A stretch of 63,984 bases of DNA from a virus. Shown here in pieces: positions 2,601 through 51,499 of this stretch. The notes beneath the pieces were generated by a model. It worked only from the letters and a program-made list of their open reading frames with translations. It was not told where the DNA came from and ran no database searches. Position 1 is the stretch's first letter. Every line of letters begins with the position of its first letter. The translations under genes were made by a program, and so were the position numbers. Location of the stretch: positions 1-63,984 of the IMG/VR virus record IMGVR_UViG_3300007609_000018. One strand, given 5' to 3'.

Positions 2601-3377
2601 TTATTTAGTGAATAATAAACCTTCTTCGCTGAAAATTGCACCACTTCCAGTTCCGTCAGTTTGTAAAATTGTACCATTAGATGCGTTTATCCAAGTGCTA
2701 TCTGATTTGTCAGTAAATGATTTTACACCACCTTCAAAAATAATAGTGTCGGTTGTCGCAAATCTTATATTTCCAAAACTTTGAATATTAATTAAACTAT
2801 CACCTTGAATTGATAAATCTTCATTCGCTAAAATTAATAAATCTTCATTCGCTTTAATTAATAAATCTTTATTTGCTAATACATCTAGCTTTGATGTGTC
2901 AGTTACACTTATTGAGTTAAATTTTTGATTAGGAAAATCAACCCAACCTAAAGATGATACATCCCCAGCACCTAATATGTTTGCATCTACTATTCCTACT
3001 GTATTTATGAAATTTCCGTAGTCTTTGCCTTTAAATCCTATAAATGGCAAATCTAATCCTACGTTAATTGAGCTATTTAATAAAACAAAATCACCATTTT
3101 CACTTTTTACAACAGGTATATAAACACTTCCGTACTTTTCGTAGTATAAACTATCTTCTAAATTGAACAGAATAGACGCATCATTTGCATTTGCTACATT
3201 TGGAATGGTATCTACTGTTTCAAAATTGAAGTTTTGAATTTCATTACCCTCTAACGTTAGATTATCTCTCATTTTTGTTTGCCCATATATATCTACATTT
3301 TGAAAATATGGTGTCCAAGTTTGAGAATAAGTTATTGAAGTAATTAATACTGCTAATATTGTTAAGATTTTTTTCAT
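2601..3377 (-). CDS. Fibre-like protein with Sec signal peptide
   Basis: 258 residues. Residues 1-19 (MKKILTILAVLITSITYSQ) form a textbook Bacteroidota signal peptide, which is unusual for a virion protein. The rest is low in cysteine and rich in D, N and S. A tandem beta-repeat at about residues 167-205 (units such as DLLIKANE, DLLILANE, DLSIQGD) resembles parallel beta-helix stretches of phage fibres and spikes. The ATG overlaps the stop of the upstream fibre gene as ATGA, so the two are translationally coupled. It is either a secreted or surface-displayed protein made late in infection, or a fibre that captured an export signal. Confidence 0.65.
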   Translation of the reverse strand: MKKILTILAVLITSITYSQTWTPYFQNVDIYGQTKMRDNLTLEGNEIQNFNFETVDTIPNVANANDASILFNLEDSLYYEKYGSVYIPVVKSENGDFVLLNSSINVGLDLPFIGFKGKDYGNFINTVGIVDANILGAGDVSSLGWVDFPNQKFNSISVTDTSKLDVLANKDLLIKANEDLLILANEDLSIQGDSLINIQSFGNIRFATTDTIIFEGGVKSFTDKSDSTWINASNGTILQTDGTGSGAIFSEEGLLFTK

Positions 3378-4148: not shown

Positions 4149-7100
4149 TTATTTTAACCCTAACTCTATTTTTGCCTCGCTTTTTGCTTTTTGCCATAGT
4201 TTAGCTACATCTTTTTGAATTGTGGTTATTGGTTCGCCTCTTGATTCCATTTTTTTGTTCTTAAAGTACGGTTTTTTTGTAAATTCCATATAACCTTTTA
4301 TTCCCATGTATGTCCATTTTGGTTTTGGTAAACCATCTTGTGTTATTTCGAGTGGTGCGTTTAAGAATTTTTCACCTGCTAATTTTATGTATTCGTAATG
4401 CTCTTCTTCTGTAAGATACCTGTATTCTAATCCATTTTCGTCAAAATAATATCCTGCTGTGTTTTTTATCTTATTTGGAATTGCAGCGTTGTTTAATAAA
4501 AACATATCTACTTCGTAATTTTCCGAATCCTTACCTTTTCTATCTATGTAGTAGCTTATGTTTATGAATTGATCGCCTGGAAAGCCTTTTACCTCTTGTC
4601 CGTAAATATCTAATCTTGGCTTATTTACAAAATAATTTATTCCTGCTTTGTAAGCCATGTAACCTTTTAAATCTTGATAAGTGTAAGAATTACCTGTCAT
4701 TATTTTTTCAATCTGCCTTTTAAGGTTTATGTTCCAAAACAATACATCCCCAACTTGACCAATAGTCATATCTGCAATGTTTTTAATCAATCCTTTAAAT
4801 GGTTTGTTTTTTTGTGTATCAGTTATACTTTCCTCTGTTTCTTCGGCTTTTCTAAATGCTGTTCCAACTTCTGATACTAACTTAGATACACCTTGTAGGA
4901 TAGACATATCTAAAACCATTGTTGAAGTGTTTTTAGTTGCATCTAACCATAACATCCTACCTGTTTCGGCAGCTACTGCAAACCTTAAATTCATCTCATC
5001 TTCAGAGATAGATTTATCTGCCTTGTGTTTTCTCAATAAATCATTATAATTTCCAATCAACGTCAAGGGAATAGATAATGCAGGTATGTTTAAGAAATTT
5101 ATACCAGGGGTATAAGGTAATTTTAAAGTATATGCAGGTAGTGCTTCTTTTGCTTGTGTTCCATAGTTATCTGTTCCTGCCTTTAGACTTCCTGTTAAAT
5201 AAAATTCATCATCATCTTCGCCTGTTCTGCCTATAAATAAAGCACCTAAACCAAGTAAAGTTGCCGTTCCAAGCATTGCCCTCCCCATTTGTATTTCATA
5301 TTTCCTTGTGCCTCTTTCACCCATCATTGCAGAATTTTCAGCAAAACCACCAAAAAACTTACCACCATCTACTACTCTTTTCGATCTTGAATATATACCA
5401 GATACACTTAACCCATTGGCCCTTAATATGCCGTAAAAAGGTGCGTGGTCAAGCATATATTCCGATATGTTACCTACTACTGTTGTGAATGGAATATAAT
5501 TCATTGTAGCTAACTTTGATGCAATATTGTGATTAGATACGGTTGAAAGTAGTTTTGTGAACTTAGCTACTGTTCCGTTTCTTTCTCCTGTAAAGGTTTG
5601 CTGTTTAGCAATATCCATTAACTCATCTTTAGCATCTTCTGTTAAATCTTCAATGTTATTGTATATTATTTCTTGAAGTCTAATGGCTTTTTCCGAATTG
5701 GATAGTTTTTTACCAGACAGTTTTTCATATTGAGCAAACTCTTTATCAGCTTGTTTTTGAATTTTTTTAGTTTTATCGGTATCTGTGTTAAGTATTGCCA
5801 TTTGATTTGACACCATTGTTCTCAAATCTTTGCCTTTATATCCTTGATTAGAGTACACATCGTATAGATTCTGATACATTTCTCTTTCAAAATTAAGGTT
5901 TGTCATAAAAGCATCTTGTGCTGCCAAAAACCTACCAACATATCTTGCATAGTTATAAGGATTAAAAAATCCCAACTTAAACCTGTGTCCGTTATACTTT
6001 TCTCTTTCCAACTCACTTATGGTAAACTTGTTATCACGAGATATTGATTCTATTTGTTTGTAGTTTTGAGTTCCCTCTATCATGTTTGCAACGGCTAAAT
6101 TCCATGAGTTTGCCCAATTATTCGCATCTCTTCTGAATGTAAATAACCTCTGTATTGGGTTTCTTCTTTTGTCGTTAAAATATGAAGTAGGATTTAACAA
6201 ATCCGAAAACGGTGCTATTGCATAATTCCAAGCATTAGACCACATATTTATTACTGTGGTAAAAGGACCACTAAGCATTGAAGCGTATCTCAAGCCAACA
6301 AATACATTTACTAAGTTTACAACATTTTCTGGGTAAAGTTCTGTTATGTACTTTGCTATATCTCTTGTTGCCTTTGTTTCTATTGCACTACCTGGTCTTG
6401 ATAACTCTACATTTTCAGCTAATTCTTTTATTCTTTGAATTTGCTTGTTTGTTAATGGATTAGTAAGATTAAACTTATAAGCAAATAATTCTCTATTTAA
6501 TTTAGATGTAAAAGCACCATTGTTTATTGCTTCCATCATTTTATTAAGAACAGTTTTTCTTTTTCTTTTAACTGATGGCAACCTACTACTCCCCATAAAG
6601 TTAATAAGTGCTTTTTCTATTTTAGGTTTTAATGTCTTGTTTACTTCTGCCGTTATTTCATCGTTTAATTTTTTAGCCTCGCTTTTTGTTAAACCGTATT
6701 CATTCATTAATACCGTAACAATGTTCTGAACTTCTTTTTGAGTATTGGAATAATGCTTTCCTATCAATTCCTTAAAATCTATTTCATCTAATAGTTCTCT
6801 TTTTCTATTTTCAACCGTCAATTCTTCATCTGCCTCCTTAAATATTTTATCTGTATGGTTGTTATAGGCATCTTCTATTGTTTTCTTTTGCTCTTTTGTG
6901 GCTTTTTTATATCCTTGATGTTTTTTCAAAGCTGCCATTCCCTTTTTAATGACTTTAGCCTTATCTCCGCTTCTTTTTATTTCTTTTACACTTGCCTCTA
7001 TTGCTTTATAAAATGCTTGCTGTGCAGGTGTTAATTTAGCACTAAATTGAATTTCTGAAGAAACAACACTAAGGCTTATGTTTTTATATTTCTCTGCAAC

Positions 7101-10100
7101 TTTGTCTTTAAACTTTTGTGTCTTTTCTTTTGGCGATTTAGACATTTTTATTGCTTTCGCCTTTAACCTTTCTATTAACGATTTGTTTTCTTTTGCTAAA
7201 TCAACAACTTCTTTTTTTAGTCCATTTATAGTTTTTTCAAATTGAGTAAGCATTTCTCTTGCTGTTTCTCCTTTTGGACCTACTTTTTGATCAAGTGATT
7301 TTGTATTACTTTCATCTATTTTTCTTGATACTCTTTCTGCAATAGCTATCCCTTGACTTGCATATATTTTACTCATAAACTGAATACCTCTACCTGCTGT
7401 TCTGGCCATTTGGTCGAAAGTGTTTGCTATTGTTTTTTGCTTATTAAGTAGTTCATCAATCTTAGCCATTACGCTAATTTCATTATCTACATTTCTCATA
7501 TCAGATTCTTGAAGTGAATACTGATTCAATGCAGTTCCAAGTATCATAGACCTCATATCAAATGGCATATACTTAGTTTCATCCATTGCTAAAACTACCG
7601 CTTTGTCTATCCCCCCAAGTTGCTCTATTAAAGCATTTCCCATTTCAATAGTTTGCTGATTAGTTTGAACATCGTAATAAAGTCCAACTTCATCTTCTAT
7701 GGATTTTTTTGTTTCTGAACTAATACCTTTTGATAAGTTTACTATTTTATCTATTAATGATTTAGCTCTTTTTTGCAAATTACTATTGTTTGGATTAGAC
7801 GTATCTGGCTCTTTTGGTGGTGTTTTAGAGGGTTCTTTCGATTTAACTTCTTTAGATATTTCATTTCCAGATAACAATTCTGCTGCTGCTAAATCGGTAA
7901 ACTTTTCTAATGTTAAGTCTGCTAATTGCTCTGAACTCATGCTTGTTATTCCTAAAGCATTTTTTACTTTATCAAACAATTCCTTTATATAGGCTTTAAA
8001 TGCGTTCTCTTTGGCTTTTAAAAACTTCGCACCCTTTTCCCCTATTGCTTGTGCTAACGCTTCTTCTAATATGCTTTCCTTGCTATTATTGGCATATACA
8101 GGGTTGTTTCTTACGTCTTTTTCGTATTGAGTTCCTTCTACTAACTCTATCCCTTTATCATATACCTCTTTATGGTTGTTTTTAATGTATTCATTCCAGA
8201 TATGACCGAACTCGTGAATTGGTGTGTCTGTTGTTGCCTTATCTGTGTTTATGAATACTTCTCCATCTTTTACATATCCTAATGGCGGTATCGCTCCTTC
8301 AGTTAATTTTAAATCTTTTGCTATTTCTTCTGAATTTTTGAAGTTTACCTTAATATTCGGAAATGCTTTGTTTAGCACTTTTGTTAGTTTTTCAAGTGCT
8401 TTTTCAGATAGCTTTTGTTCTTTTGATTGTTCTTGGAATGGAACCTCAAAATCATCTACTTGTCCTTGCTCATTTTCGTCTGGCTTTTTGCTTTCATCTT
8501 TCTTTTTGCTTTCAATGCTTTTGCTGCTGCTCGGTAGCACTTCTCTATTGTTGATTCTTCCATGGTTTTTGTTTAAATAGTTATAAAAATAATCGTTTAC
8601 AGGTGGAAATACTGTATCTAAATATTCCTCTGTTTTTTCTGTGTCTAATAATCCATCTTCATTAACAAAGTTTTCAGCTATGTGTGCGTAAAATTCTTGC
8701 TCATAACTTTCAAACTCGTCAATACTTTCAACTGCTTCTTCTAATTCTACATCTTCCTCTAATTGCTCTTCTTTTGCTATTTTTTCTTTTTTAGCTTGTT
8801 TCTCTTTTTCTATTCTTTCCATTGCAGCAATATCCTCTTTAGTGTACTGTTGCTCTTGCTGCATTGTACCTAAATAAGTTTCTATCATTTCTGCTTTAGT
8901 GTTGTGGTTTCTCATTACATCTAATATCTCGTTTCTGTAAACAGAATCGTCTATATCGGTATTATACTCAACACTCTGATCACTTTTAAGACTTTCTATT
9001 AAGTCGTCTATTGTATTACCTTTTCTATTGGTTAATAAGGTCTTCTTCGCACCTGCCTCTTCTGATTTACCTACTTCTCGACCGCTTTTATCTAACCTGC
9101 TGCCTATTCCTAATTCTTGATAGATTTCATTCTTGTCCATTTTACCACCAAATATCAAATATTGAAGTATGTGTTGCAATGGACTTTTAGGTGTATCTGA
9201 ATTTATTTTATCTTTTATTTCATTTTCAATGGTTGCCGAACTTACCGCACCTATCATTTTATTCTCAATAGCTGAAAATTGAGTGTTTTTACCTATTGTT
9301 TTCTTTCCTTTCTTATTGTATTCGGATGTTCTTGATACTTCTTTTCCTGTGTCTTTGTTTTTTATAGTAACAGCTTTACCATCTTTGTTTACACCTACTT
9401 CAAATGTAGCATTTCTATATTCTACTTCTTTGGTTTCTACTACGGTTTCATTTTCTTTTTTAGCTTTTTCTATTCGCTTTTGACGTTCTGTTTTTTGTTC
9501 TTGTATGTCAGATTCTAAATCTTTGGTTTCTTGGCTTACATCGCTTTCCTTTGCCTTTTTTAACTCTTTTTTAGCTTTCTCTACTTCTGCTACAAATGGT
9601 TTTAAACTCTCGGTTGCAGCATCTTGACTTACTCTCTCATCAAATAATTGACCTTTGTTGCTTTTTCTTTCCCCAAACAAGTCTGCTTGATCCTCGTTTA
9701 TCTTTTTACCAAACTCTTTCTTTTTAGCTTCTAACTTTTGTCTTGCTTTAGATAATCTATCTTCTGCTTTAGATATTCTTTCCTCTTTCTGTTTTTGTTC
9801 TGGGGATTTTGTTTTTGGCTTTTCTTCTTCTAATATACCCTCTAAACCTGTTTCTACCTCCGTATCATCATCTAAAATGCCTTCTAATCCTGTTTCTACT
9901 GTTGGTTCAGTTTCTACTTCTGCCTTATTTTCTTCTATTTGCTCGTTTTTAGGCTCTCTAACCATAGTTAAGCCATCTTCTTGCATAACGAACCCATTAT
10001 CTTCATAAAGTTTCTGTAAACGGTCTTTATCGGTATCGGCATCTTCTGGTACTACTTTTAGTTTTATTTGTTTGCCATCTTCATCTGCTGCATCAGTTAG

Positions 10101-13100
10101 CTTTTTTAATGCTTTTTTTGCGTTTCCTCGACCTTTCTCTTTTGACTTGACACTTTCTAAGGTAATTCCGCTTTCATCTTCTGTAAGGATTATTTCTGTG
10201 CCATCTACGTCTAATGCTACACCTCCTTCCATTACATCTTCTATGCTTTCGGATTTACCTATTTTGTCTGCGAATTGTTTTGTTTCACTCGGTTCAGTAT
10301 CTCCAACCGTTTCTTTATCGGTAGTTGATTCAGTTTCTCCTTTAGCGATTTCCTCATCTGCGATTCGCTCAACTTCTTGCTGTTGTTCTGGTGTGTATTC
10401 TTCATATACTTCTTTTAATTTAATTTGATATGCTATTTCTTCGGCAGCTCTACCTCTAAATGTTCTTTTTTCTCCGCTTTCGGTTTCTAATGATACTGAA
10501 TAAGAACCATCTTCTTTTTGAGTAACCGCCATTTCTGGCTTACTAAAATTGTTTTTGTAGGTTTTGCCATTTACTGTAACAGTATTATCTTCTGCTATTT
10601 CAACTTCATCTTGTTTCTGTTGTAATATTCCATATTCTTTTAACTTCTTAGATGATATTTGGTTTTTGTTCCCTAACTCAATTATTTCGTTGCTTGTTTC
10701 AAACACGACTGTTTGTCCATCTAATCTTAATCTTCCTTCTTTACCGTCTTTTTCGTAAACGCTATCTTCATCAATAGATTCTGCAATAGTATTGTTACCG
10801 CCTAAATCATCTACTTCTTTTTCAGACTTTCCTGGAGTGTAATCTTTTTTAGATTGTACATTGAATTTACTTCTTGTGCTTTTTTCTTTTGTTGGCTCAT
10901 CTTCCAATGTTTCCTCAAAACCTGTTTCTGCTTCTTCTTCAGTAGATTGCTCTAATTTTGCTATTTCTGCATCATATTTAGCATTGATTGAATTTCTCTT
11001 GTTTTCAGCTAATTGCCATTTACCGGCACTTACTTTTATATCGAATTGTTCCTTTATTTTTACGGAAACATCCTTTAAAGACATACCACTTTCAAGCCAT
11101 AATTTAATTTTAGCTTGTATTAACTTTAATTCTTTAGCACTTATAAATCCTTTCTCGTATGCTTGTACTGCATCATTTCTTATTTCTTTTGATCCTTGAC
11201 CTACAATAGATAGTTCTCCGTCATTATAGTTCGTTAAATCTTCTTGAATAACTACATCTCCAAATTTCTGCTCTTTTAACTCACCTTCTCTTTCAGCTTC
11301 TATTTTTTCAATAGGAGATTGAGTTTTTTCTTTTTTAGGCTCTATCTTTCCTTTTTCGTTAAGGCCTAATATTTCTTTTTGCTTTTTATCTATTTCAGAT
11401 ATTTTAGCATTGTTTAGTGTTTTTAAATTCTTATCAGCTATTTCTTCGCCTTTCTTTTCTAACTCTGCTCTTTCTTTGCCTAATTCAAAGTATTCAAACT
11501 TTTTATTATCATCTAATTCATTTGGTAGCTGACTTGTAATTTCAGATGCTTCCTTAATGTCTTTTCTTGCTTGTGTAGCTTGTTCTTTGGTTATTTCTTG
11601 TTCTTTCTCTAATTCAGATAATACTTTTAGTGAGTTATCTTTTTTAAACGAACTATTGAATATAAAAGCATTATATCTTTTTTTACTGTTTAATTGGTTT
11701 TGTGTAGCTTCTATTGCACCACCAAAAATTCCCATTGCTGAACCTAATAAAAAGTTATCTCTAGCCTCTCTGTAATCAAATACGTTCTCTACTCTTGTTT
11801 CTGATGATAGGTTGTATGTTCCGGTTACACCCATTTCAGTTAGTTTCTCTAATACAGATTCTTCTAAACCTTCCCCAAAACCATTTTTAATTATAGCACT
11901 ACCATAATTTCTTATTGTGTTTATTGTGGCGTTTTTAAATCCTTCTTTAGCAATACTATTTCTAACTGAATTTTTTGTTATCTCTTTTACAAACTGTGAT
12001 TTAGAACCTTGAATTATTCTAGCCTCCATTCCAAATATCAAGTTGGTTAAACCTATAACTATGGAAACATCGTTTGAATATCTTGAGGCCTCGTCTTTTG
12101 TCATTCCCATTCCAATAGCTTGCTCGTATATGCTTTTTTGCATTTGCGCTGCTATTATTCCTGTTACTGCTGCTTTTGAACCTATTGTAGCTGACTTGCC
12201 TGTTAAACTCAATCCTTTTACCATTCCACTACCACCAACAAACATAGTTCCTAAGTCTGCTAATACATCTAATCCTTGGTCCACAAATTGATTAACATTA
12301 AACTTTTCTTTTGGTTTTGGTTTATTATCATCTGCTAAATACGCATTTTTTACTTCTGTGGCTTTTTCTTCTGATACCGCATACCCATCTTTATCTCTTA
12401 CTGATACTACATCACCTTCTTCGTTGAATAATATTTTAGAATCGCCATAGTCTGCCTCGAAATTAAACATACCTTGCTGAAATCTTGATGATTTAGTGAT
12501 TGTTCTTCTTTCTACATAATCTCTTGACATATCTTGAATGGCATTTGTCCAACCATAAGAAGGTGTGTCGGAGTAACTAAACGCTTGAAATCTATCTACT
12601 AATGAACCTGGCATTTGTAAAAGTCCACCCATTGTTTTTGTTACTGCATTTTGAACCGCTATAAGTGGTTTTGAAAAGAAAAATTCACTTTCTCTACCTT
12701 TTTCCTTAAATCTTTTTTTAAGTTTTTCTTCTCTTGCAGCCGTTTCGTTTTCTATTTTAGTAATGTATTCTTTTGCTAAACTATAATCGTCTTTTTTAAG
12801 CAAGTTTTTAGACGTTTCAATTAATTCTTCTTGTCTTTTTTCTATTTTAAATACATCGTTGAATAAAGGATCACTTTGTAGTTTTTCCAATTCCTTTATT
12901 TCTTCTTCACTTTTGTTTTCTTTCTCAAATAAGTTTGCGTATGCGTTTAAGTTTTTATAATCTATTATCTGCTCTTTTAAATCGTTTAATCGATTAAAAT
13001 TCCATTCGATAGCTTCTTGGTGGTGTAGGTATTTATCTTTATTAGCACCCTGTTCGTCTTTGTCTGTTGCAAAGAAATATTCGCCTCTCTCTCTACTTTT

Positions 13101-13844
13101 TTTAGCGTATTCGTATTTTTCTGGGTTTGTTTCTTTTAGATATTTATTGTAATTCTCTAAGGCGTTTCCACCTATTAAATCTACTTCTTTCTCGTATATA
13201 TCTTTTAGGTTGTTTGCTTTTAGTTGTTTTTCACTTGCTTGTAGTTCAAGTAATGAGTACCCTTTATCAGATGTTTCTTCTTTGGGTTTTTCTTGTATTC
13301 CCATATCTACATTAGTCGTACTTGAATCTAATGTTTCTGGCTTTTTAAACTCACTATAATCTTCCATTCCAATATCCTTTACATTGGATTGTGTTTTATA
13401 GTAATCAGCTTGGTAGTTTAATAAATCAATTTTGCTTTGGTAAGGGTTGTTTTTTCTTTCTTGCCTTTCTTCTTTAAACTGCTCTATTCCTTCTCTTTCT
13501 TCTTTTCTTTGGGTTTCTGAAATATTTGGAACTTGATTTTCGGTAGGTTGCTTATCATCTTCTTTAGGTATTTGATTATTGCTTTCGGTAGATTCCAATT
13601 CTCCAACTTGTGATCCACTTCCACCACTCTCGGATTGTTCTTTTTTTTTTAAGCCGTATTTGTTAAGTATAACCTCTTTTTGCTCTTCGCTTATTGGTTT
13701 ACCTGTCTTTTCTGCAAACTTGTCTAATAACGCACCATAATTACCTTTATACTTGGTTTTAATGCTTTCCTTTTGCTCGTTAGACATAGTTTTGCCTGTC
13801 TTTTCTTCAAAACTGCTTAATAATTGGTCTATATCCTTACTCAT
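4149..13844 (-). CDS. Giant internal virion (ejection) protein with zinc-peptidase motif and GNAT-like segment
   Basis: 3,231 residues, the largest gene in the window. In order: a duplicated helical unit (about 3-33 and 34-64, each with an 'EKTGK...S.EQKE' core); long coiled coils; a hydrophobic, glycine-rich region (about 520-615) and another near 690-715; a GNAT-acetyltransferase-like segment (about 1203-1296) with KGRGNA and LYEDNGF; a tandem TGLEGIL repeat near 1317-1340; a zinc-peptidase motif HEFGH at 1877-1881 with candidate third ligand E1927 or E1928; long helical regions; and two membrane-like stretches near 2508-2550 and 2858-2880. It is the third and largest of three adjacent internal proteins, matching the place of T7 gp16. 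No lytic transglycosylase motif was seen. Such multi-domain phage proteins are known as polyvalent proteins, thought to enter the cell with the DNA and counter host defences. Acetyltransferase and protease activities are inferred. Confidence 0.85.
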   Translation of the reverse strand: MSKDIDQLLSSFEEKTGKTMSNEQKESIKTKYKGNYGALLDKFAEKTGKPISEEQKEVILNKYGLKKKEQSESGGSGSQVGELESTESNNQIPKEDDKQPTENQVPNISETQRKEEREGIEQFKEERQERKNNPYQSKIDLLNYQADYYKTQSNVKDIGMEDYSEFKKPETLDSSTTNVDMGIQEKPKEETSDKGYSLLELQASEKQLKANNLKDIYEKEVDLIGGNALENYNKYLKETNPEKYEYAKKSRERGEYFFATDKDEQGANKDKYLHHQEAIEWNFNRLNDLKEQIIDYKNLNAYANLFEKENKSEEEIKELEKLQSDPLFNDVFKIEKRQEELIETSKNLLKKDDYSLAKEYITKIENETAAREEKLKKRFKEKGRESEFFFSKPLIAVQNAVTKTMGGLLQMPGSLVDRFQAFSYSDTPSYGWTNAIQDMSRDYVERRTITKSSRFQQGMFNFEADYGDSKILFNEEGDVVSVRDKDGYAVSEEKATEVKNAYLADDNKPKPKEKFNVNQFVDQGLDVLADLGTMFVGGSGMVKGLSLTGKSATIGSKAAVTGIIAAQMQKSIYEQAIGMGMTKDEASRYSNDVSIVIGLTNLIFGMEARIIQGSKSQFVKEITKNSVRNSIAKEGFKNATINTIRNYGSAIIKNGFGEGLEESVLEKLTEMGVTGTYNLSSETRVENVFDYREARDNFLLGSAMGIFGGAIEATQNQLNSKKRYNAFIFNSSFKKDNSLKVLSELEKEQEITKEQATQARKDIKEASEITSQLPNELDDNKKFEYFELGKERAELEKKGEEIADKNLKTLNNAKISEIDKKQKEILGLNEKGKIEPKKEKTQSPIEKIEAEREGELKEQKFGDVVIQEDLTNYNDGELSIVGQGSKEIRNDAVQAYEKGFISAKELKLIQAKIKLWLESGMSLKDVSVKIKEQFDIKVSAGKWQLAENKRNSINAKYDAEIAKLEQSTEEEAETGFEETLEDEPTKEKSTRSKFNVQSKKDYTPGKSEKEVDDLGGNNTIAESIDEDSVYEKDGKEGRLRLDGQTVVFETSNEIIELGNKNQISSKKLKEYGILQQKQDEVEIAEDNTVTVNGKTYKNNFSKPEMAVTQKEDGSYSVSLETESGEKRTFRGRAAEEIAYQIKLKEVYEEYTPEQQQEVERIADEEIAKGETESTTDKETVGDTEPSETKQFADKIGKSESIEDVMEGGVALDVDGTEIILTEDESGITLESVKSKEKGRGNAKKALKKLTDAADEDGKQIKLKVVPEDADTDKDRLQKLYEDNGFVMQEDGLTMVREPKNEQIEENKAEVETEPTVETGLEGILDDDTEVETGLEGILEEEKPKTKSPEQKQKEERISKAEDRLSKARQKLEAKKKEFGKKINEDQADLFGERKSNKGQLFDERVSQDAATESLKPFVAEVEKAKKELKKAKESDVSQETKDLESDIQEQKTERQKRIEKAKKENETVVETKEVEYRNATFEVGVNKDGKAVTIKNKDTGKEVSRTSEYNKKGKKTIGKNTQFSAIENKMIGAVSSATIENEIKDKINSDTPKSPLQHILQYLIFGGKMDKNEIYQELGIGSRLDKSGREVGKSEEAGAKKTLLTNRKGNTIDDLIESLKSDQSVEYNTDIDDSVYRNEILDVMRNHNTKAEMIETYLGTMQQEQQYTKEDIAAMERIEKEKQAKKEKIAKEEQLEEDVELEEAVESIDEFESYEQEFYAHIAENFVNEDGLLDTEKTEEYLDTVFPPVNDYFYNYLNKNHGRINNREVLPSSSKSIESKKKDESKKPDENEQGQVDDFEVPFQEQSKEQKLSEKALEKLTKVLNKAFPNIKVNFKNSEEIAKDLKLTEGAIPPLGYVKDGEVFINTDKATTDTPIHEFGHIWNEYIKNNHKEVYDKGIELVEGTQYEKDVRNNPVYANNSKESILEEALAQAIGEKGAKFLKAKENAFKAYIKELFDKVKNALGITSMSSEQLADLTLEKFTDLAAAELLSGNEISKEVKSKEPSKTPPKEPDTSNPNNSNLQKRAKSLIDKIVNLSKGISSETKKSIEDEVGLYYDVQTNQQTIEMGNALIEQLGGIDKAVVLAMDETKYMPFDMRSMILGTALNQYSLQESDMRNVDNEISVMAKIDELLNKQKTIANTFDQMARTAGRGIQFMSKIYASQGIAIAERVSRKIDESNTKSLDQKVGPKGETAREMLTQFEKTINGLKKEVVDLAKENKSLIERLKAKAIKMSKSPKEKTQKFKDKVAEKYKNISLSVVSSEIQFSAKLTPAQQAFYKAIEASVKEIKRSGDKAKVIKKGMAALKKHQGYKKATKEQKKTIEDAYNNHTDKIFKEADEELTVENRKRELLDEIDFKELIGKHYSNTQKEVQNIVTVLMNEYGLTKSEAKKLNDEITAEVNKTLKPKIEKALINFMGSSRLPSVKRKRKTVLNKMMEAINNGAFTSKLNRELFAYKFNLTNPLTNKQIQRIKELAENVELSRPGSAIETKATRDIAKYITELYPENVVNLVNVFVGLRYASMLSGPFTTVINMWSNAWNYAIAPFSDLLNPTSYFNDKRRNPIQRLFTFRRDANNWANSWNLAVANMIEGTQNYKQIESISRDNKFTISELEREKYNGHRFKLGFFNPYNYARYVGRFLAAQDAFMTNLNFEREMYQNLYDVYSNQGYKGKDLRTMVSNQMAILNTDTDKTKKIQKQADKEFAQYEKLSGKKLSNSEKAIRLQEIIYNNIEDLTEDAKDELMDIAKQQTFTGERNGTVAKFTKLLSTVSNHNIASKLATMNYIPFTTVVGNISEYMLDHAPFYGILRANGLSVSGIYSRSKRVVDGGKFFGGFAENSAMMGERGTRKYEIQMGRAMLGTATLLGLGALFIGRTGEDDDEFYLTGSLKAGTDNYGTQAKEALPAYTLKLPYTPGINFLNIPALSIPLTLIGNYNDLLRKHKADKSISEDEMNLRFAVAAETGRMLWLDATKNTSTMVLDMSILQGVSKLVSEVGTAFRKAEETEESITDTQKNKPFKGLIKNIADMTIGQVGDVLFWNINLKRQIEKIMTGNSYTYQDLKGYMAYKAGINYFVNKPRLDIYGQEVKGFPGDQFINISYYIDRKGKDSENYEVDMFLLNNAAIPNKIKNTAGYYFDENGLEYRYLTEEEHYEYIKLAGEKFLNAPLEITQDGLPKPKWTYMGIKGYMEFTKKPYFKNKKMESRGEPITTIQKDVAKLWQKAKSEAKIELGLK

Positions 13845-13853
13845 TGCTTTTTT

Positions 13854-15515
13854 TTAAAAATCATCCCAAATATCAGAACCACCACTTGACTTTGGTCGGA
13901 ATACCTTTTTTTCCACTCCATACTTTTCAGCTAGTTTGATAGCTTGTTCTTCAGTAAATTCAATTCCCCCATTTGCAACTTCTATTTTTATTTTATTTAC
14001 ATCTGAACGCTTTGTAGCGTTTGATATTAATGTATTATAAACCTGTTCTCCTGCCTCTAATGGTGTGTTCGTTTGTTGTTGGTTTATTGCTTCTGGAATA
14101 AATACACCATTTTCATAGGCATTGTTTTCCGTCATGTAATCAACTGCTATGGTTGCTGCTTCGGCTGTATTCTTCTTAAACATTTCACTATTCTGCAATA
14201 CATCCATCATTATTGACGTATTTTCTATCGGAACAAACTCTGCGCCTCCGTTTAGTCTATTGTCTATGGTTGATTGTGTTGTTTTTATGGTAACACCCCC
14301 ATCTTCTGAATATTTTATTTGAAGTATTCTATTGTCTAATGCAATTTCGTTTCCTTGATCAGCTGCGTTTCTAATATCATCTTCTGTAATACCTAAATCT
14401 AACAAATCGTTTGATGATAACGCTTTCATTTGTATTGCTTGAGGCAAAGGTATTGCAATATTACCTAATTTCTGATTATTGAGATAATCACCTGTGTAAA
14501 CATAATCGCCTGTTTTTGGGTTTTTTGTAAACACTCTTTTATCCCCTGTCATCATTAATGACATTTTATTTACAAAATCATTTACTCCACGCTTTAAATT
14601 ATCTCTATCTTGATTTCTTCCTGCATTTGGATTGTTCCTAGAATTAATTTCTTTTTTGTTGTAAGCCATATAGCCAAACATCATTTTCATATACTCTTCT
14701 TCTTCTGTTGCGAATACACCGTTAGTTTCGTTTACAGACATTCTTCTTGCTAATTCTTTTTGCTGTGTTGGTGGTAGGTTTGCTATCCCCTCAATAGCTA
14801 ATTCTTTCGCTTCTGGATTTGATTCCAACAATCCTCTAAATGCTTCATAGGTTCTGTCCTTACCTACTGATGTTTCTTTTACAGTTCCTTGCATTGTTTT
14901 CCCTACAAACGTTCTTGAACTTATATCTTCTTTTAGTTTTGAAAAAGCATTTTCTGCAAGTTCTTGTAAATTGTCTTTTTTTATAACTAATAACTCATCC
15001 ATTTCAAGCCTTTCTTGTGGTGTGGCTTTTTGGTATTTCATTAAGTTAGTCATTGAATTATCCCAATCATAAACACTATTGGTCGCATCTCTGTCTTGGT
15101 ATAATGCCTCGTATGCCTCTTTAAATGATTCTTTTTGTTGTTCTGATGTGTTTACTAATGATTCTATTTGTCTTTTTTTAGCTTGGTATTTTGGGTCCGT
15201 TTCTGGATTTACGTTTTCCATTAATGAATTTGTATAATCTGTTTGTAAGCTATTTATACTTTCATCAATTAAAGGTATGTCATATTGCCACGCACCTTCA
15301 GAATCAACATCAAATTCGCCCAATGCTTTTTCCATTGCCTTTTTCTCTGCTGCTTTCTTAGCCTTTTGTCCTGCTTGGAACTTTTGGACATTGTTTACTA
15401 TGTCTAAATGTACATCTAAAGGTTTTCTTCCAGATGTTTCAAATATATATGCACCCACACTACTGCCACCTCCATCTTGTGCATACATAAAATCATTTCC
15501 TTGCTGTGCTGCCAT
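13854..15515 (-). CDS. Internal virion protein, middle-sized ejectosome component (gp15-like)
   Basis: 553 residues, largely helical and polar, with no cysteine-rich or enzymatic motif. It begins with a flexible alanine- and glutamine-rich stretch (MAAQQGNDFMYAQDGGGSS) and ends in an acidic tail, SGGSDIWDDF. It sits between a small PG-binding internal protein and the 3,231-residue protein, which is the gp14-gp15-gp16 order of T7-like ejectosomes. By analogy it would form part of the conduit across the periplasm. The assignment rests on gene order and composition rather than recognisable homology. Confidence 0.6.
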   Translation of the reverse strand: MAAQQGNDFMYAQDGGGSSVGAYIFETSGRKPLDVHLDIVNNVQKFQAGQKAKKAAEKKAMEKALGEFDVDSEGAWQYDIPLIDESINSLQTDYTNSLMENVNPETDPKYQAKKRQIESLVNTSEQQKESFKEAYEALYQDRDATNSVYDWDNSMTNLMKYQKATPQERLEMDELLVIKKDNLQELAENAFSKLKEDISSRTFVGKTMQGTVKETSVGKDRTYEAFRGLLESNPEAKELAIEGIANLPPTQQKELARRMSVNETNGVFATEEEEYMKMMFGYMAYNKKEINSRNNPNAGRNQDRDNLKRGVNDFVNKMSLMMTGDKRVFTKNPKTGDYVYTGDYLNNQKLGNIAIPLPQAIQMKALSSNDLLDLGITEDDIRNAADQGNEIALDNRILQIKYSEDGGVTIKTTQSTIDNRLNGGAEFVPIENTSIMMDVLQNSEMFKKNTAEAATIAVDYMTENNAYENGVFIPEAINQQQTNTPLEAGEQVYNTLISNATKRSDVNKIKIEVANGGIEFTEEQAIKLAEKYGVEKKVFRPKSSGGSDIWDDF

Positions 15516-15517
15516 TT

Positions 15518-16420
15518 TTATTTTATTTTACTTATAGCTTTTTTCATTGTAGGCCCATAAACACCATCTATTATTCCATCATATAAACCTGCATCTTTAA
15601 GTCTTTTTTGAACTTCTGAAATACTCTTTGAATCAAGTTTACTAAAGTCTGTATTTTTTGCTTTATAAGGATTTAATTCTGCCATATTGCTAAGGTTTGG
15701 CGTATCTATGTTTGAAGTATCTATTCCCATAGAGTTGCTTTCGTCTTGTTTTTTCTGCAAATCAGACTTAGTTGTAGATAAGTCTGAATTTATTTTTGGA
15801 CTTACACTTTCATCTTTAGATTTTTTCTTGCCACCACCTTCAATACCTGCTAATGTACTTGCAGTAGAACCAATGGTGCTTGTAATATCGTCTATTGCGT
15901 TTTGGCTGTTGGCTGTTGATGCTATTTCTAACGCATCTGCTTGTTCTCTTAATTTTTCTTCTTCTAACCTTGCCTCTTGTCGTCTGTCATCTTTTAATGC
16001 ACCTATTCCTTCTTGTGATCTATTGGCTACATCTTGTCTTTTTACCCTAAAACCTGCATTTTTAACATCTAAATCTGCTAATGTTTTCATTTTACCTACA
16101 CCTAATGAAGCTATTGCGCTTAATCTGTCTGAACCTGTTTTGCCACTTTCTCTAATTGTTCTTGCACTATTAGCCTCGCTATTATCTAAACCCGACTTTG
16201 CAGTTTCAAGTCCTGGCATATTCGATAGTGCCATCATTTGATTCATATTCGCAACATCTTTATATTCTTGCTGAATAGGTTGCGCTTTAATTCGCTTTTT
16301 TCTTAGTTCTTCTGCTTTTTTAGCTTGTTCTTTTGCAGTTTTAATTCTTGTTGCTGCTGAACCAATGCTTCCTATTGTTGAAATTCCTAAACCTATTGCT
16401 TGACCTATTCCTGGTAACAT
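15518..16420 (-). CDS. Small internal virion protein with C-terminal peptidoglycan-binding domain (gp14-like)
   Basis: 300 residues. The N-terminus is a glycine-rich hydrophobic segment (MLPGIGQAIGLGISTIGSIG) followed by a K/E/A-rich coiled coil, typical of gp14-like ejection proteins. The last 35 residues (VQKRLKDAGLYDGIIDGVYG, then PTMKKAISK) are a PG_binding_1-type repeat, which binds cell-wall glycan or peptide. This domain probably targets the ejection complex to the murein. It lies directly upstream of the other two internal proteins, and only 3 nt separate it from the nozzle-like gene. Confidence 0.72.
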   Translation of the reverse strand: MLPGIGQAIGLGISTIGSIGSAATRIKTAKEQAKKAEELRKKRIKAQPIQQEYKDVANMNQMMALSNMPGLETAKSGLDNSEANSARTIRESGKTGSDRLSAIASLGVGKMKTLADLDVKNAGFRVKRQDVANRSQEGIGALKDDRRQEARLEEEKLREQADALEIASTANSQNAIDDITSTIGSTASTLAGIEGGGKKKSKDESVSPKINSDLSTTKSDLQKKQDESNSMGIDTSNIDTPNLSNMAELNPYKAKNTDFSKLDSKSISEVQKRLKDAGLYDGIIDGVYGPTMKKAISKIK

Positions 16421-16423
16421 ATT

Positions 16424-19400
16424 CTAAATTTTTGTTCGTTCACTTACTTCAAAGTTAATAATATAAGACCACAAATCTACACTTTCTTTATTATCGTTCC
16501 TTAATTTAAGCAAAATTGCAACACTACGCAACCTTTCTCCGTTCAATATCGGATTAGATACAGTTGTGTTTAAATCACGCTTAAACTCTGAATACCAATG
16601 GTCTTGCTTGTTTCTCCAACTTCCTTTTAGTATTCTTGATAATTGTCCTTCTCTATTTGTTATTTCATATATCTCCCAATCACAATTTCCATCTAATTGT
16701 TTTTGTTGCAACTCATTTGCATAAAATACTTTTGGATGGTTTGGATCTGGATTAGCCAACAGCCATAACTCACTTGGTGCAAATATTCCGTTAAACTCGT
16801 TTATATTTCCTTTATCGTGTACCATTAATTGTCCATTATTAAACGATATAAGGCTGTTTAAAACAGAAGTATAGTAATCTTGTTCATAAGTGTAAAAAGT
16901 GGTCCAAATCTTCTTTAAATTGCTATATGCGATTGTTTCTCTATCGCCTCTTATGTACAATTTTACTTTATCGCCTATTTTGTATTGGTCTGTTATGTTT
17001 CCTAATATAAATATTTTATTGTTGCTTGTAAAGTATATTTGAAACTTGGTTAATGTTCCTTTGTATTCTATTTCTACTGAAGTAAAGTTTGGTATTCCGC
17101 TTGGTGCTGATGATTCTAAACCTGTTACATCTAAATTATCGTCTGATGCTACAACCTCAAATTCAAACTCTTGACCTCTTTTCCCTATTGTTAAAATGTA
17201 TTCTCTATAAAACGGATCATATACTGCCGGTGCATCCCATATTCCGTTTTCGCATACTTGTCTGAAATAGTTTCTTGCTTTGTTCTCTGATATTATCTCT
17301 AACCCTGCTTGACTATATTGCCAAACTGCATTTCTAAATGAATCAAACCCAAATGCTAAGTTTTCATACTCAACTATACTTTCTGGGTGCTGTGTTCCAT
17401 AGTTTCCTGTTAATGGTCTTACATTGTTTAAGAATTTATCTGATACCCCAACTGTTTCTTCTCCGTTTGAATCTATAAATATGCTTTCGTTTACATACAC
17501 GCTTACAGACCTGTTTAAGTGTACTGATAGCAATATGCTACCAACTCTCAATAATCTTTTTATCAATCCAAACTCTCTATCTATTTCAATATCCTCTAGT
17601 CCTTCATTGTTTGATAATCCATTTACCTCTGTATCTGGCACAAATATATTTGACACTCTTAATGATGTCGGTCTAAATATCTCTTTAAAATCTTTATCTA
17701 CAATACCTACTCTACCTAAATCTAAATCTTCACTTGGGTAATTGTCTGATATTCTTAAAGATTCTATTACATAGTTAAATGATGAAAATACACTATCATC
17801 TTCATCAATAACTCTCATCGTTCTTTTTCTGAAATAACTATCTCCACCTTTTATAAATAATTGCGGAACACTATGACTGTTTTGACTTGTTCCTGGACTT
17901 GTGCATTTATAACAAGTTGCTGATTCATAGTATATTTTTTCTTCTTCAAGTAGCCTACGATTGAATATTTCAACCAAAACACCTGTTTTTATCTCTGGTA
18001 GCGAACTTTCTGTTTTAAGCACTAACCAATTACCGTTTTTGTACGAAACTGCCTTAAACTCGAATAATTCGTCATAATAAACACCATCTTCATTTAGTAC
18101 AAGTCGAACTCTATCTCCTTCTTCAAATGTATATCCTAATTGACTGTCGTTTTCTCTATCAAATTGGTCTATTAAGTTATTCAAGTTAATCATAACTTGG
18201 TTTGCATCTCCATTTGAGTAACTCGTTTCACTTGCTTCTTGGTTATCATCATCGTAAGAAGTGATGTATTGAACGTTATTTACCAAATATTGCAACGATT
18301 TACTGTGATGGATGTTTTTTGTAATTAGTATTTGATAGTAATGCGCCCATTTAGGAGGTTTTGAGTTTAAATTAACTCTTATTCTTGCAGGTCCGTATTT
18401 CTTTGTGTTTGGTATTGGGTAGCTGTCTGGATAGTATTGGTTTAAATCTTCTCCATAAAACGGTATGTATGCTTTTCCTAAATCAACTACACTACAAACT
18501 CTACCTGCTTCATCTTGGTACCTTATACCTACTAAATATGAACCACCTCTTTTTCTTGCTTTACCAACCTCTTCTGTTCTAACTGTTACACCTATATCGA
18601 ATAAAGTAAATACTGCTGTTGGAGAATATGGTGGTCCAACTGTTGTTACGTTTTCATCAAACTCTATTTGCGCTAAAAACTGACTTCCAGATAATGAAGG
18701 AACTAAACTTGAACTGTATGTTATAGGACAACTATTGTAATCACTTAAAAGTATGTTATCGTTTCTTAGAGTGTAGTTTCCGTATGTTTGAGTTATAAAC
18801 TGTACTGTATTATTTTCTTCTGAAGATGTAAGAGGAATGTTGTTTAACACCAATGTTTTTCCTATTGTGTTTGACCACTTTATATATGCAAATGATATAT
18901 TTGCAAACACAGGTATTCTGTAAAATCCTTGCGAATCTGTTAATGCTACTCTTCCTGTTTCTGCAAATTGCACCATTACATTAGAAACACCATTCCCGTC
19001 TGAATCTTTAACATACCCTTCTATAAACGTTTTAAGGTTGTTTGAAAACTGTTGGTCGCTTACAATAGACAGTAATTGTTGATGCTCGTTTAGGCTTAAT
19101 GGGTTTGGATTAGTAGATAGCAAGTTAAAATCTTTTAACACACCATTTGATTGACTATCATAATAAGTCTGTACGGAGTATGAATCTTCACTAAAACTAG
19201 GGGGATTGTTATTTTGTATATGGCTTATTTTTGGTGTTTGAACTATAACATCAGACAATTCAAATGCGTATAACTTTCTTCTGTACCAATATCCGTTATG
19301 GTCTGTGTAATAAGGATATTTTGCATCTATTAATAAGTTATCTGTAACGTCATTTTCATTTATAATTAAAGCTGCTTTTTCAACTCTATTTCCTTCGTCT

Positions 19401-21544
19401 GCATCATCTAATGAAGTGTTCCCTTTGTTGTCAATCAAATATCCAGAAACAGAAGAACCTTTTATATCATCTTCTGGCTTAATATTTACTAAATCATCTA
19501 CATAAAAAGTTCCTACATCAATATCTGAATTGGTTATTTCAATTTCAAATTCACTTACAAAATATCTTCTACCATTTGCATCCTCTACCGCACAAACATT
19601 TGTACTCGTTCCTTGATATGCTCTTCCTTTTGTGATGTCATACATAGGTCCTTTATCTAACTTATCGCCTATACTACACCAATGACTTGCTATTCTTACA
19701 ATGTATCTTCCTGGTCTTACATTTTTAATATTGAACGTACTGTAAACATCATTCCCATCTTTAATCCAATCTGTAATTCCATCTACATTATCTTGAGCAT
19801 CAATTATATTGTTTGTGGTTTGTGCAAAATCAGTATTTATTTGTTTTGAAATATCTACATAGTCTGTTCCTGCTAAGTAAACCGGAAAACCACCTTCTGG
19901 AATCCATTGTTCGTACCCAGAACCTTGAAATGTTCTTGTTTCTGAATTTGATATAACACCTATACCACCCCATACAGGAAATTGACCTATACCATTTTCA
20001 TCATCTTTATTCAACTGCATTATAGGTTGTGATGTATTTGTTAATGGTAAAAAGTCGGACCCATAAGGCTGTCTTATTGTTTCACTTTCCCAATTCCCAT
20101 TATTCTGCCAATTGAATATCCTTATTTTCCCTGTAACATTGTATGTTTCTTTGTTAGCGCTATCTTCTACTTGAATACCTAAATCAGCATCTACGCATGG
20201 TGTATCGTAATCATCTAACACCCCACCGTCAATCAATCTGTTTTCTATTATCTTTTGCGATTCTGAATATCTTGGAACTTTATCATACAATTTTGCAGCT
20301 AATACATCATCTATTCCTGCCTGTGCTACATCATTGAAATACTTATACATTACCTTTTTGTTGGCATCAACAATATGGTAAAACTCACATATATCTAAAT
20401 CTTCTACTACTTTCCAAAATCCACTATTTCTTTCTCTTACGTGAACTCTTACTCTCTTTAAAATAGTCCAAATATTGCTATCTAAGAGGTTTTCATCGTT
20501 AAAGTCTATCTCTACGTAGTTTAGGTCTTTATTTGCGCCACAAACGGTATTATTGATAGGTATTTCACTTATTGGTCCTAATGCACTTCTTTCAGCATCA
20601 TCATAAACATATTGAAGTCTAAATTGAAATACCTTTTCTTTTATGTAGTTGTAATTTATTTTTTCGTCTTTTTTATAAATTACTAAAGGATCGCAACCTG
20701 GTGGATATTTTGCTCTATCAAAAAATCTATCTACTAAATTTGTTCCATACCAATTTGATGGTGTTACTTTTGGAAATAAATCGTTTCCTTGACTGTCTGT
20801 AAATTCTACCTCTACTTCTACTGCATTTAAACTTAGATTTGTTTCGGTTACTTTTAAAAAACAATTACACTCATCTGCTTTTAGGAAATTACTAAACCCA
20901 TTGTTTATTGCACTCGATAAATCTTGTATTACATCTTTTCTATTATCGTCTGTTACTTGACGTATAAGGTCTAATAAAATATTTCCTTGACTGTCTTTTA
21001 ACTTTAACCTAAAGTCTTTGTCTGTGTCCTCTGAATAGTCAAATTTAGGTAGGTAAATATCCCAACTCTTAGCCTTGTTTGTAATATTGGCTTTGTTGAT
21101 GTTTATTTTTCTTGGTTTTATGTTGTCTGTCCAATACAGTAAATCGTTATTAATTAAATCTATTCCTGTAATGTATCTGTCTTTTATCCAACCAAAATTA
21201 AATGTTATTATCCTTTCAACTACTCCATTTGGGTTTGCTGTATCTGTTCTTTCTGGAAAGTATCTGTATATGCTATGGTTAAACTCACTATTCCATATCA
21301 TATAGATACAGGTTCTTTGTTGTTTGTCGTTTAATGCGCCTATACACTTATTCTCTCCTTCTGGCAAAGCAAACTCTACTAATACATTTCCTTTTACGTT
21401 TGTTGATGAGTTTTGTCTTTCAATATAAGCCACACTATTCCTAATATTGATAGCTTTACGATAGTCCGTTTGTTTTACATCTCTATCATCGCTATCGAAA
21501 TCCATTCCTCCAATAGGTCGTATTTCGTGCTTTTTGTATGACAT
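16424..21544 (-). CDS. Large tail nozzle / tail stabilisation-like protein
   Basis: 1,706 residues, beta-rich. The N-terminus (HEIRPIGGMDFDSDDRDVK, then a 'DYRKAINIRNS' stretch, then 'NKCIGALNDKQQRTCIYMIW') resembles the large nozzle or 'stabilisation' proteins of Bacteroidota podoviruses and crAss-like phages, where beta-propeller repeats form the tail tip. At about residues 840-905 there is an inserted carboxypeptidase-regulatory-like beta-sandwich (GYVKDSDGNGVSNVMVQF, then TDSQGFYRIPV). That domain type often mediates adhesion or surface display. It sits between the connector genes and the ejection proteins. Exact placement in the tail is inferred from gene order. Confidence 0.72.
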   Translation of the reverse strand: MSYKKHEIRPIGGMDFDSDDRDVKQTDYRKAINIRNSVAYIERQNSSTNVKGNVLVEFALPEGENKCIGALNDKQQRTCIYMIWNSEFNHSIYRYFPERTDTANPNGVVERIITFNFGWIKDRYITGIDLINNDLLYWTDNIKPRKININKANITNKAKSWDIYLPKFDYSEDTDKDFRLKLKDSQGNILLDLIRQVTDDNRKDVIQDLSSAINNGFSNFLKADECNCFLKVTETNLSLNAVEVEVEFTDSQGNDLFPKVTPSNWYGTNLVDRFFDRAKYPPGCDPLVIYKKDEKINYNYIKEKVFQFRLQYVYDDAERSALGPISEIPINNTVCGANKDLNYVEIDFNDENLLDSNIWTILKRVRVHVRERNSGFWKVVEDLDICEFYHIVDANKKVMYKYFNDVAQAGIDDVLAAKLYDKVPRYSESQKIIENRLIDGGVLDDYDTPCVDADLGIQVEDSANKETYNVTGKIRIFNWQNNGNWESETIRQPYGSDFLPLTNTSQPIMQLNKDDENGIGQFPVWGGIGVISNSETRTFQGSGYEQWIPEGGFPVYLAGTDYVDISKQINTDFAQTTNNIIDAQDNVDGITDWIKDGNDVYSTFNIKNVRPGRYIVRIASHWCSIGDKLDKGPMYDITKGRAYQGTSTNVCAVEDANGRRYFVSEFEIEITNSDIDVGTFYVDDLVNIKPEDDIKGSSVSGYLIDNKGNTSLDDADEGNRVEKAALIINENDVTDNLLIDAKYPYYTDHNGYWYRRKLYAFELSDVIVQTPKISHIQNNNPPSFSEDSYSVQTYYDSQSNGVLKDFNLLSTNPNPLSLNEHQQLLSIVSDQQFSNNLKTFIEGYVKDSDGNGVSNVMVQFAETGRVALTDSQGFYRIPVFANISFAYIKWSNTIGKTLVLNNIPLTSSEENNTVQFITQTYGNYTLRNDNILLSDYNSCPITYSSSLVPSLSGSQFLAQIEFDENVTTVGPPYSPTAVFTLFDIGVTVRTEEVGKARKRGGSYLVGIRYQDEAGRVCSVVDLGKAYIPFYGEDLNQYYPDSYPIPNTKKYGPARIRVNLNSKPPKWAHYYQILITKNIHHSKSLQYLVNNVQYITSYDDDNQEASETSYSNGDANQVMINLNNLIDQFDRENDSQLGYTFEEGDRVRLVLNEDGVYYDELFEFKAVSYKNGNWLVLKTESSLPEIKTGVLVEIFNRRLLEEEKIYYESATCYKCTSPGTSQNSHSVPQLFIKGGDSYFRKRTMRVIDEDDSVFSSFNYVIESLRISDNYPSEDLDLGRVGIVDKDFKEIFRPTSLRVSNIFVPDTEVNGLSNNEGLEDIEIDREFGLIKRLLRVGSILLSVHLNRSVSVYVNESIFIDSNGEETVGVSDKFLNNVRPLTGNYGTQHPESIVEYENLAFGFDSFRNAVWQYSQAGLEIISENKARNYFRQVCENGIWDAPAVYDPFYREYILTIGKRGQEFEFEVVASDDNLDVTGLESSAPSGIPNFTSVEIEYKGTLTKFQIYFTSNNKIFILGNITDQYKIGDKVKLYIRGDRETIAYSNLKKIWTTFYTYEQDYYTSVLNSLISFNNGQLMVHDKGNINEFNGIFAPSELWLLANPDPNHPKVFYANELQQKQLDGNCDWEIYEITNREGQLSRILKGSWRNKQDHWYSEFKRDLNTTVSNPILNGERLRSVAILLKLRNDNKESVDLWSYIINFEVSERTKI

Positions 21545-51271: not shown

Positions 51272-51499
51272 CTATTTAATTTTGTTCTTAAAATAACGCT
51301 CTAAGGCGATTGAAATAATAAACCCTATACCAAATATGCCTAAGTGTATAATAACCTCTCTAAACTTAATTAAAGTGCCAAATACATGGTAAGAAGTGTT
51401 TGCTGCAATTACAATAAATATCTGTACTGCAAATAATACCTTGAATATCTTGCATACTAAATATTTTTGAGTGTAATATTCTATCTGTTCTGGTTTCAT
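51272..51499 (-). CDS. Two-TM membrane protein, 75 aa
   Basis: Two hydrophobic helices (about residues 16-35 and 50-66) joined by a short loop, with a basic C-terminus (ERYFKNKIK). No family recognised. It overlaps the methyltransferase upstream as ATGA. A small inner-membrane protein amid replication genes could anchor the replisome or exclude other phages; neither is supported beyond position. Confidence 0.55.
   Translation of the reverse strand: MKPEQIEYYTQKYLVCKIFKVLFAVQIFIVIAANTSYHVFGTLIKFREVIIHLGIFGIGFIISIALERYFKNKIK

What the first reader, a model, noticed from the sequence alone, without database searches (positions are those of the whole stretch)
4149..13844. 3,231-residue ejection protein with zinc-peptidase motif and acetyltransferase-like segment
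A single gene of 9.7 kb forms the last internal virion protein. It holds HEFGH (1877-1881) with an acidic residue about 50 residues on, and a GNAT-like stretch with KGRGNA and LYEDNGF (1203-1296). T7 gp16 is about 1,300 residues and carries a lytic transglycosylase instead. A virion-delivered protease plus acetyltransferase could disarm host defences or modify host proteins on entry.
Basis: partly seen in the sequence, partly recalled or inferred. Interest (0 to 1): 0.85.

Follow-up and report, generated by a model that had tools for sequence, protein, structure and literature searches.

The report
Giant phage protein with two enzymes
A virus that probably infects Bacteroidota bacteria encodes a 3,231-residue protein, likely packed in the particle and injected with its DNA, that carries a zinc-protease domain and an acetyltransferase domain whose nearest solved relative is the anti-CRISPR enzyme AcrVA5, so it may tame the host in the first moments of infection.

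Summary
A 3,231-aa ORF lies on the minus strand at 13844-4149. HEFGH (1877-1881) sits in a ~195-aa domain found in 80 other IMG/VR loci, almost all in ORFs of 1.3-5 kaa. A glutamate 47 residues on (E1928), not part of the search pattern, is invariant in 77/77 aligned domains. AlphaFold2 models it well (pLDDT 85) and its ranked PDB matches are mostly zincin metallopeptidases. Residues ~1200-1306 model as a GNAT fold. Three sequence tests, Foldseek and VIA-align all rank the anti-CRISPR acetyltransferase AcrVA5 first among solved structures. Both domains recur together in Tenacibaculum phage Gundel_1 and other phages, and are about twice as conserved as terminase or portal. Relatives carry LPD23, ART-PolyVal and Kinase-PolyVal domains, so this belongs with the known 'polyvalent proteins'. 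Synteny places it last in a T7-like ejection cassette. New in the material searched: the AcrVA5 link, and an N-terminal duplicated ~30-aa unit plus KKK motif shared by many such giants. Injection, catalysis and targets are inferred. The 'disarms host' idea is plausible but untested; self-processing by the protease is at least as likely.

The parts
4149..13844 (-). Whole giant ORF, 3,231 aa
13749..13823 (-). N-terminal repeat unit 1 (residues 8-32)
   Evidence: tandem duplication p<=0.005 against shuffles
13656..13730 (-). N-terminal repeat unit 2 (residues 39-63), 31 residues after unit 1
13638..13649 (-). KKKE motif (residues 66-69), followed by a Ser/Glu-rich linker
   Evidence: KK[KR]+polar in the first 130 residues of 41/71 giants against 3.3 expected
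11277..12584 (-). Conserved N-terminal region (residues 421-856), function unassigned
   Evidence: shared with L053, L058, L062, L069, L075, L077
9927..10229 (-). AcrVA5-like GNAT acetyltransferase domain (residues 1206-1306)
7857..8444 (-). Zincin-like metallopeptidase domain (residues 1801-1996)
8202..8216 (-). HEFGH zinc/catalytic motif (residues 1877-1881)
8061..8063 (-). E1928, predicted third zinc ligand
   Evidence: invariant in 77/77 aligned domains and not in the search pattern
5076..6749 (-). C-terminal region (residues 2366-2923), shared with L086 only
13854..15515 (-). 553-aa neighbour, in the T7 gp15-like position
   Evidence: gene order as in Gundel_1, phi13:2, phi38:1; no family hit
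15518..16420 (-). 300-aa neighbour with peptidoglycan-binding domain, in the T7 gp14-like position
   Evidence: PF01471 E 2e-5
16424..21544 (-). 1,706-aa structural protein
   Evidence: phrog_14478 E 9e-36

Best explanation
The gene encodes a giant polyvalent virion protein of a podovirus-like phage of Bacteroidota. It is packed in the head as the last member of a T7-like ejection cassette and injected with the DNA. Its conserved enzymatic islands are a zincin-like metallopeptidase near the middle and an AcrVA5-like GNAT upstream of it. Proposed working: the N-terminal duplicated tag helps load or dock the protein; the zincin cuts the polypeptide in cis (in the head or after entry) to free its modules, or cuts a host protein; the GNAT then acetylates lysines on host proteins, possibly defence proteins, during the first minutes. 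Shown by computation here: domain identity, conservation, gene context. Inferred: packaging, injection, catalysis, cis-cleavage, targets. The confidence given is for the whole chain including delivery and active enzymes; the two domain assignments alone I hold at about 0.95.
For: Zincin: 44% to Gundel_1, 80 loci in giant ORFs, invariant HExxH and E1928, confident model with zincin matches. GNAT: motifs, model and AcrVA5 as best structure and profile match. Class: relatives carry LPD23, ART-PolyVal, Kinase-PolyVal, InPase, L007 has GNAT+LPD23+second peptidase. Context: same gene order with virion-structural annotations. Constraint: zincin 42-55% and GNAT 34-45% identity against 21-25% for TerL and portal. 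Literature on the class.
Against: No proteomics for this phage; 'structural protein' labels of relatives are annotations, partly by similarity. Foldseek alone does not find a significant solved match for the zincin (best E 1.3). No cleavage site or acetylation target known. The window protein itself hits no polyvalent Pfam domain.
Confidence: 0.6

Rival explanations
1. The GNAT is specifically a virion-delivered anti-CRISPR: it acetylates a Cas protein (Cas12a or Cas2-like) before immunity can act, as AcrVA5 does.
For: AcrVA5 is the closest solved relative by structure and by profile, with a clear gap to the next GNAT. AcrVA5Bsp, from a phage assigned to Bacteroidota, inhibits Cas12a in vitro and its homologues are mostly in Bacteroidota phages (PMC10799925). 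AcrVA5 also acetylates Cas2 (PMC11021501).
Against: Tree unresolved; AcrVA5 is described as a broad-spectrum acetyltransferase; no Cas12a found in 296 sampled genomes of the host phylum, though without a positive control; identity to AcrVA5 only 25%.
Confidence: 0.2
2. The zincin is purely a maturation protease that processes the giant protein itself (or other internal proteins) during head assembly, and does nothing to the host.
For: Zincin lies near the middle of most giants, fitting release of modules on both sides; P1 DdrB is processed before packaging and has a zincin (PMC5512222).
Against: The N4 virion RNA polymerase keeps its zincin but is packaged unprocessed (PMC5512222). No cleavage site is evident.
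Confidence: 0.35
3. The domains are structural relics: folds kept for packing or stability in a giant scaffold, without catalysis.
For: No activity data; the rest of the protein diverges quickly.
Against: E1928, G1935, G1938 and the HExxH residues are essentially invariant (HEFGH itself is biased by the search pattern). GNAT motif A and the Y-x-x-x-G-F motif are kept. Both islands evolve more slowly than TerL.
Confidence: 0.05

Closest known systems
Polyvalent proteins (Iyer et al. 2017, PMC5512222)
   Same: Giant multidomain phage protein; zincin as the hub domain; GNAT among the partner enzymes; next to structural genes; relatives carry LPD23, ART-PolyVal, Kinase-PolyVal
   Different: GNATs were reported there for gammaproteobacterial (pro)phages and conjugative elements; here Bacteroidota phages, with an AcrVA5 link and a duplicated N-terminal tag not found in the papers searched
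Tenacibaculum phage Gundel_1 QQV91510 (2,482 aa structural protein)
   Same: GNAT then zincin in the same order; 36% and 44% identical; same gene order
   Different: Rest of the protein not alignable; TerL and portal only 21-23% identical, so not a close relative
AcrVA5 (Moraxella prophage anti-CRISPR acetyltransferase) and AcrVA5Bsp
   Same: Minimal GNAT fold, closest solved structure and best profile match; shared long beta5-alpha4 loop
   Different: AcrVA5 is a free ~92-aa protein; here a domain inside a giant; 25% identity; Cas targeting untested
N4-like virion RNA polymerases (PB119, Pokken)
   Same: Giant virion protein with the same type of GNAT and an HExxH motif
   Different: No RNA polymerase domain recognised in the window protein
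T7 gp16
   Same: Last gene of an ejection-type cassette
   Different: 2.5 times longer; no transglycosylase found; zincin and GNAT instead

Membership tests
Polyvalent proteins | Large protein with two or more unrelated enzymatic domains | tested here: met
   zincin plus GNAT in one 3,231-aa ORF
Polyvalent proteins | Connected by shared domains to the polyvalent network | tested here: met
   its zincin is shared with giants bearing LPD23, ART-PolyVal, Kinase-PolyVal, InPase; the window protein itself has no such Pfam hit
Polyvalent proteins | Delivered into the cell with the invading DNA | not testable with these tools
   only gene order and annotations
Zincin-like metallopeptidase | HExxH plus a downstream glutamate ligand on a second helix | tested here: met
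   H1877, E1878, H1881, E1928 invariant; E1928 lies in the modelled helix 134-155
Zincin-like metallopeptidase | Zincin fold | tested here: met
   VIA-align best rows are zincins, Z up to 6.9; Foldseek alone not significant, so moderate support
Zincin-like metallopeptidase | Zn-dependent proteolysis | not testable with these tools
   needs an assay
GNAT acetyltransferase | Motif A acetyl-CoA loop and fold | tested here: met
   R/K-G-Q/R-G-x-A conserved; fold
GNAT acetyltransferase | Acetyl transfer | not testable with these tools
   needs an assay
AcrVA5 family | Closest to AcrVA5 among solved GNATs | tested here: met
   profile E 3e-10 against 9e-4 for the next; core only 9.7e-7 against 6.5e-4; Z 12.4 against 10.0
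AcrVA5 family | Monophyly with AcrVA5 | tested here: inconclusive
   tree unresolved
AcrVA5 family | Free-standing small protein | tested here: not met
   embedded in a 3,231-aa ORF
AcrVA5 family | Inhibits a Cas protein by acetylation | not testable with these tools
   needs an assay
N4-like virion RNA polymerase | T7-type RNA polymerase domain | tested here: inconclusive
   no Pfam or PHROG hit on the window protein; remote forms not excluded
T7 gp16 | Recognisable lytic transglycosylase sequence domain | tested here: not met
   no SLT or lysozyme match at E up to 1

The most novel reading that the evidence does not exclude
A pre-loaded, virion-delivered anti-defence acetyltransferase of the AcrVA5 type: instead of being expressed after entry, the inhibitor arrives as a domain of a giant ejection protein, is released by the neighbouring zincin, and is loaded through a duplicated N-terminal tag shared by many otherwise dissimilar giant proteins.
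Probability: 0.2. Interest if true: 0.9.

Novelty: new variant of a known kind. Interest (0 to 1): 0.6.

Why it matters
Anti-CRISPRs are usually thought to be made only after the phage genome has entered, which leaves a window in which immunity can win. A pre-packaged AcrVA5-like acetyltransferase would close that window. The finding also ties polyvalent GNATs to a characterised anti-CRISPR, and points to a shared N-terminal tag that could be tested as a packaging or ejection signal of giant virion proteins.

Tried and rejected
Pfam, PHROGs and NCBIfam on the whole protein gave nothing confident; the Clr5 hit at E 0.08 was treated as chance. A nucleotide search of phages found nothing. A single-protein scan of IMG/VR failed; alignment-based scans worked. 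A joint GNAT+zincin alignment misplaced the GNAT-only rows, so the domains were modelled apart. AcrVA5 as a query did not retrieve the giants by pairwise search; only profiles do. The tree did not resolve GNAT orthology. The Cas12a census lacked a positive control and is not used as evidence of absence. Chance origin of HExxH was rejected because of the conserved 195-aa domain. Search-pattern bias on HEFGH was recognised; E1928 was used as the unbiased check. The N-terminal tag gave no confident Pfam family. Iterative searches with residues 1381-1790, 2366-2923 and 2901-3231 found no relatives among the fetched giants. No strongly hydrophobic membrane-type segment was found.

Full report
What is there. 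The window is a whole IMG/VR virus record of 63,984 bases. The ORF lies on the minus strand, 13844 to 4149, and encodes 3,231 residues. No curated family model recognises the whole protein.

Genome setting. On the minus strand come a large terminase (phrog_6681, E 3e-68), a portal (phrog_6547, E 4e-72), a capsid-type structural protein (phrog_13704) and other structural genes, then a 1,706-aa structural protein (phrog_14478), a 300-aa protein with a peptidoglycan-binding domain, a 553-aa protein and the giant. The same order (large tail-type protein, ~200-300 aa, ~510-553 aa, giant) occurs in Tenacibaculum phage Gundel_1 (with an insertion of small genes), Cellulophaga phi13:2 and phi38:1, where the giants are annotated as (virion) structural proteins, partly by similarity to other phages. 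The Gundel paper's main text does not mention mass spectrometry. Packaging is therefore inferred, not shown.

Zincin. Residues 1802-1993 match Gundel_1 at 44% (E 4e-43) and a 3,859-aa protein of phage ctfjg026. An alignment search of IMG/VR found 170 relatives, 80 kept. Almost all lie in ORFs of 1,300 to 4,990 residues, apart from those cut by contig ends, and the domain mostly lies near the middle of the chain. In 77-78 aligned domains H1877, E1878, H1881, E1928 and G1938 are invariant. HEFGH was part of the search pattern, so its invariance is biased; E1928, 47 residues after H1881, was not. AlphaFold2 gives pLDDT 85 and the order helix, strands, HExxH helix, second long helix with E1928. 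Foldseek alone is not significant (best E 1.3), though its first three rows are HExxH-type metallopeptidases. VIA-align ranks lethal-factor-type, Pro-Pro endopeptidase and IrrE/PprI metallopeptidases first, at Z 5 to 6.9. Iyer et al. also tied polyvalent zincins to the lethal-factor fold (PMC5512222). Hits in bacterial genome assemblies are mostly Bacteroidota, so the host is probably Bacteroidota.

GNAT. The segment matches Gundel_1 (36%), L007 (45%), L010, L009, L088, and the virion RNA polymerases of Xanthomonas PB119 and Stenotrophomonas Pokken and Piffle. The alignment shows motif A (RGQGxA) and Y-E-x-x-G-F. The model (core pLDDT ~85) has AcrVA5 (6iuf) as best solved match: Foldseek E 7e-6, TM 0.80 on the target, with the next non-AcrVA5 chain at 3e-3; VIA-align Z 12.4 against 10.0. 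Sequence agrees: profile E 3e-10 for AcrVA5, 9e-4 for the next GNAT. With only the motif A/B core, which removes any advantage from AcrVA5's short N-terminus, AcrVA5 is still first (9.7e-7 against 6.5e-4), and the window sequence alone also ranks it first, weakly (E 0.006). In 296 genomes of the phylum of Aquimarina longa, 5 have a match at E up to 1e-4 and the best reaches 34.9 bits, below AcrVA5's 43.7. AcrVA5 and this family share a longer beta5-alpha4 loop (alignment). The tree is unresolved, so orthology is not claimed.

Selection. Against the nearest relatives the zincin is 42-55% and the GNAT 34-45% identical, while TerL and portal are 21-25%. The two domains are the conserved islands of a fast-changing scaffold, through constraint, exchange between phages, or both.

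Family. Relatives of the zincin carry LPD23, ART-PolyVal, Kinase-PolyVal, InPase, DUF6782 and Peptidase_M78. L007 holds the GNAT, LPD23 and three HExxH motifs. This places the window protein with the polyvalent proteins, which are described as injected multi-enzyme proteins whose zincins may self-process or attack host proteins. No paper in the library mentions both AcrVA5 and 'polyvalent'.

N-terminal tag. The first ~70 residues hold two copies of a ~25-aa unit 31 residues apart, then KKKE and a Ser/Glu-rich linker. A tandem N-terminal duplication is significant in 24 of 51 non-redundant giants against 1 of 51 internal control windows. KK[KR] plus a polar residue occurs in the first 130 residues of 41/71 giants against 3.3 expected, and (within residues 31-130) in 9/195 other ORFs of the same loci, one of which is the front half of a split giant. 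The unit sequences differ between giants while the arrangement stays. A role in loading or docking is a guess.

Mechanism and verdict. Most likely the protein is packaged and injected, the zincin frees modules in cis or cuts a host protein, and the GNAT acetylates host proteins early. An anti-CRISPR role is suggested by AcrVA5 and by AcrVA5Bsp from a Bacteroidota-assigned phage, which inhibits Cas12a in vitro (PMC10799925), but AcrVA5 itself is described as broad-spectrum (PMC11021501) and the target is open. The class is known; the AcrVA5 link and the tag are the new parts.

Noticed in passing
window:13638-13823 (minus strand); N-termini of the giants in L009-L086: Many giant virion proteins begin with a tandemly duplicated ~30-aa unit, then KKK plus an acidic/polar residue near position 60-70 and a Ser/Glu-rich linker; the units differ in sequence but the arrangement recurs (24/51 against 1/51 in controls). 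Possible loading or ejection tag.
   Followed up: partly
window:36438-37070 (minus strand): A 211-aa protein matching histidyl-tRNA synthetase (PF13393, E 7e-19), shorter than the 308-position model it matches; no tRNA gene was found in the record.
   Followed up: no
window:37884-38441 (minus strand): A Cpn10-like protein (PF00166, E 2e-4, just over the cut-off), with a weak match in Gundel_1.
   Followed up: no
window:35091-35921 and 51499-52602 (minus strand): Two C5 cytosine DNA methylases, the first matching only the front part of the family model.
   Followed up: no
window:15518-16420 (minus strand): The small gene of the ejection-type cassette ends in a peptidoglycan-binding domain (PF01471).
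   Followed up: no
L003 (Xanthomonas virus PB119) and L089: N4-like virion RNA polymerases carry the same type of AcrVA5-like GNAT upstream and an HExxH motif near 2275.
   Followed up: partly
L084:3134 onward: A giant that appears split into two ORFs: a 756-aa front piece with the N-terminal tag and a 2,914-aa zincin piece.
   Followed up: no
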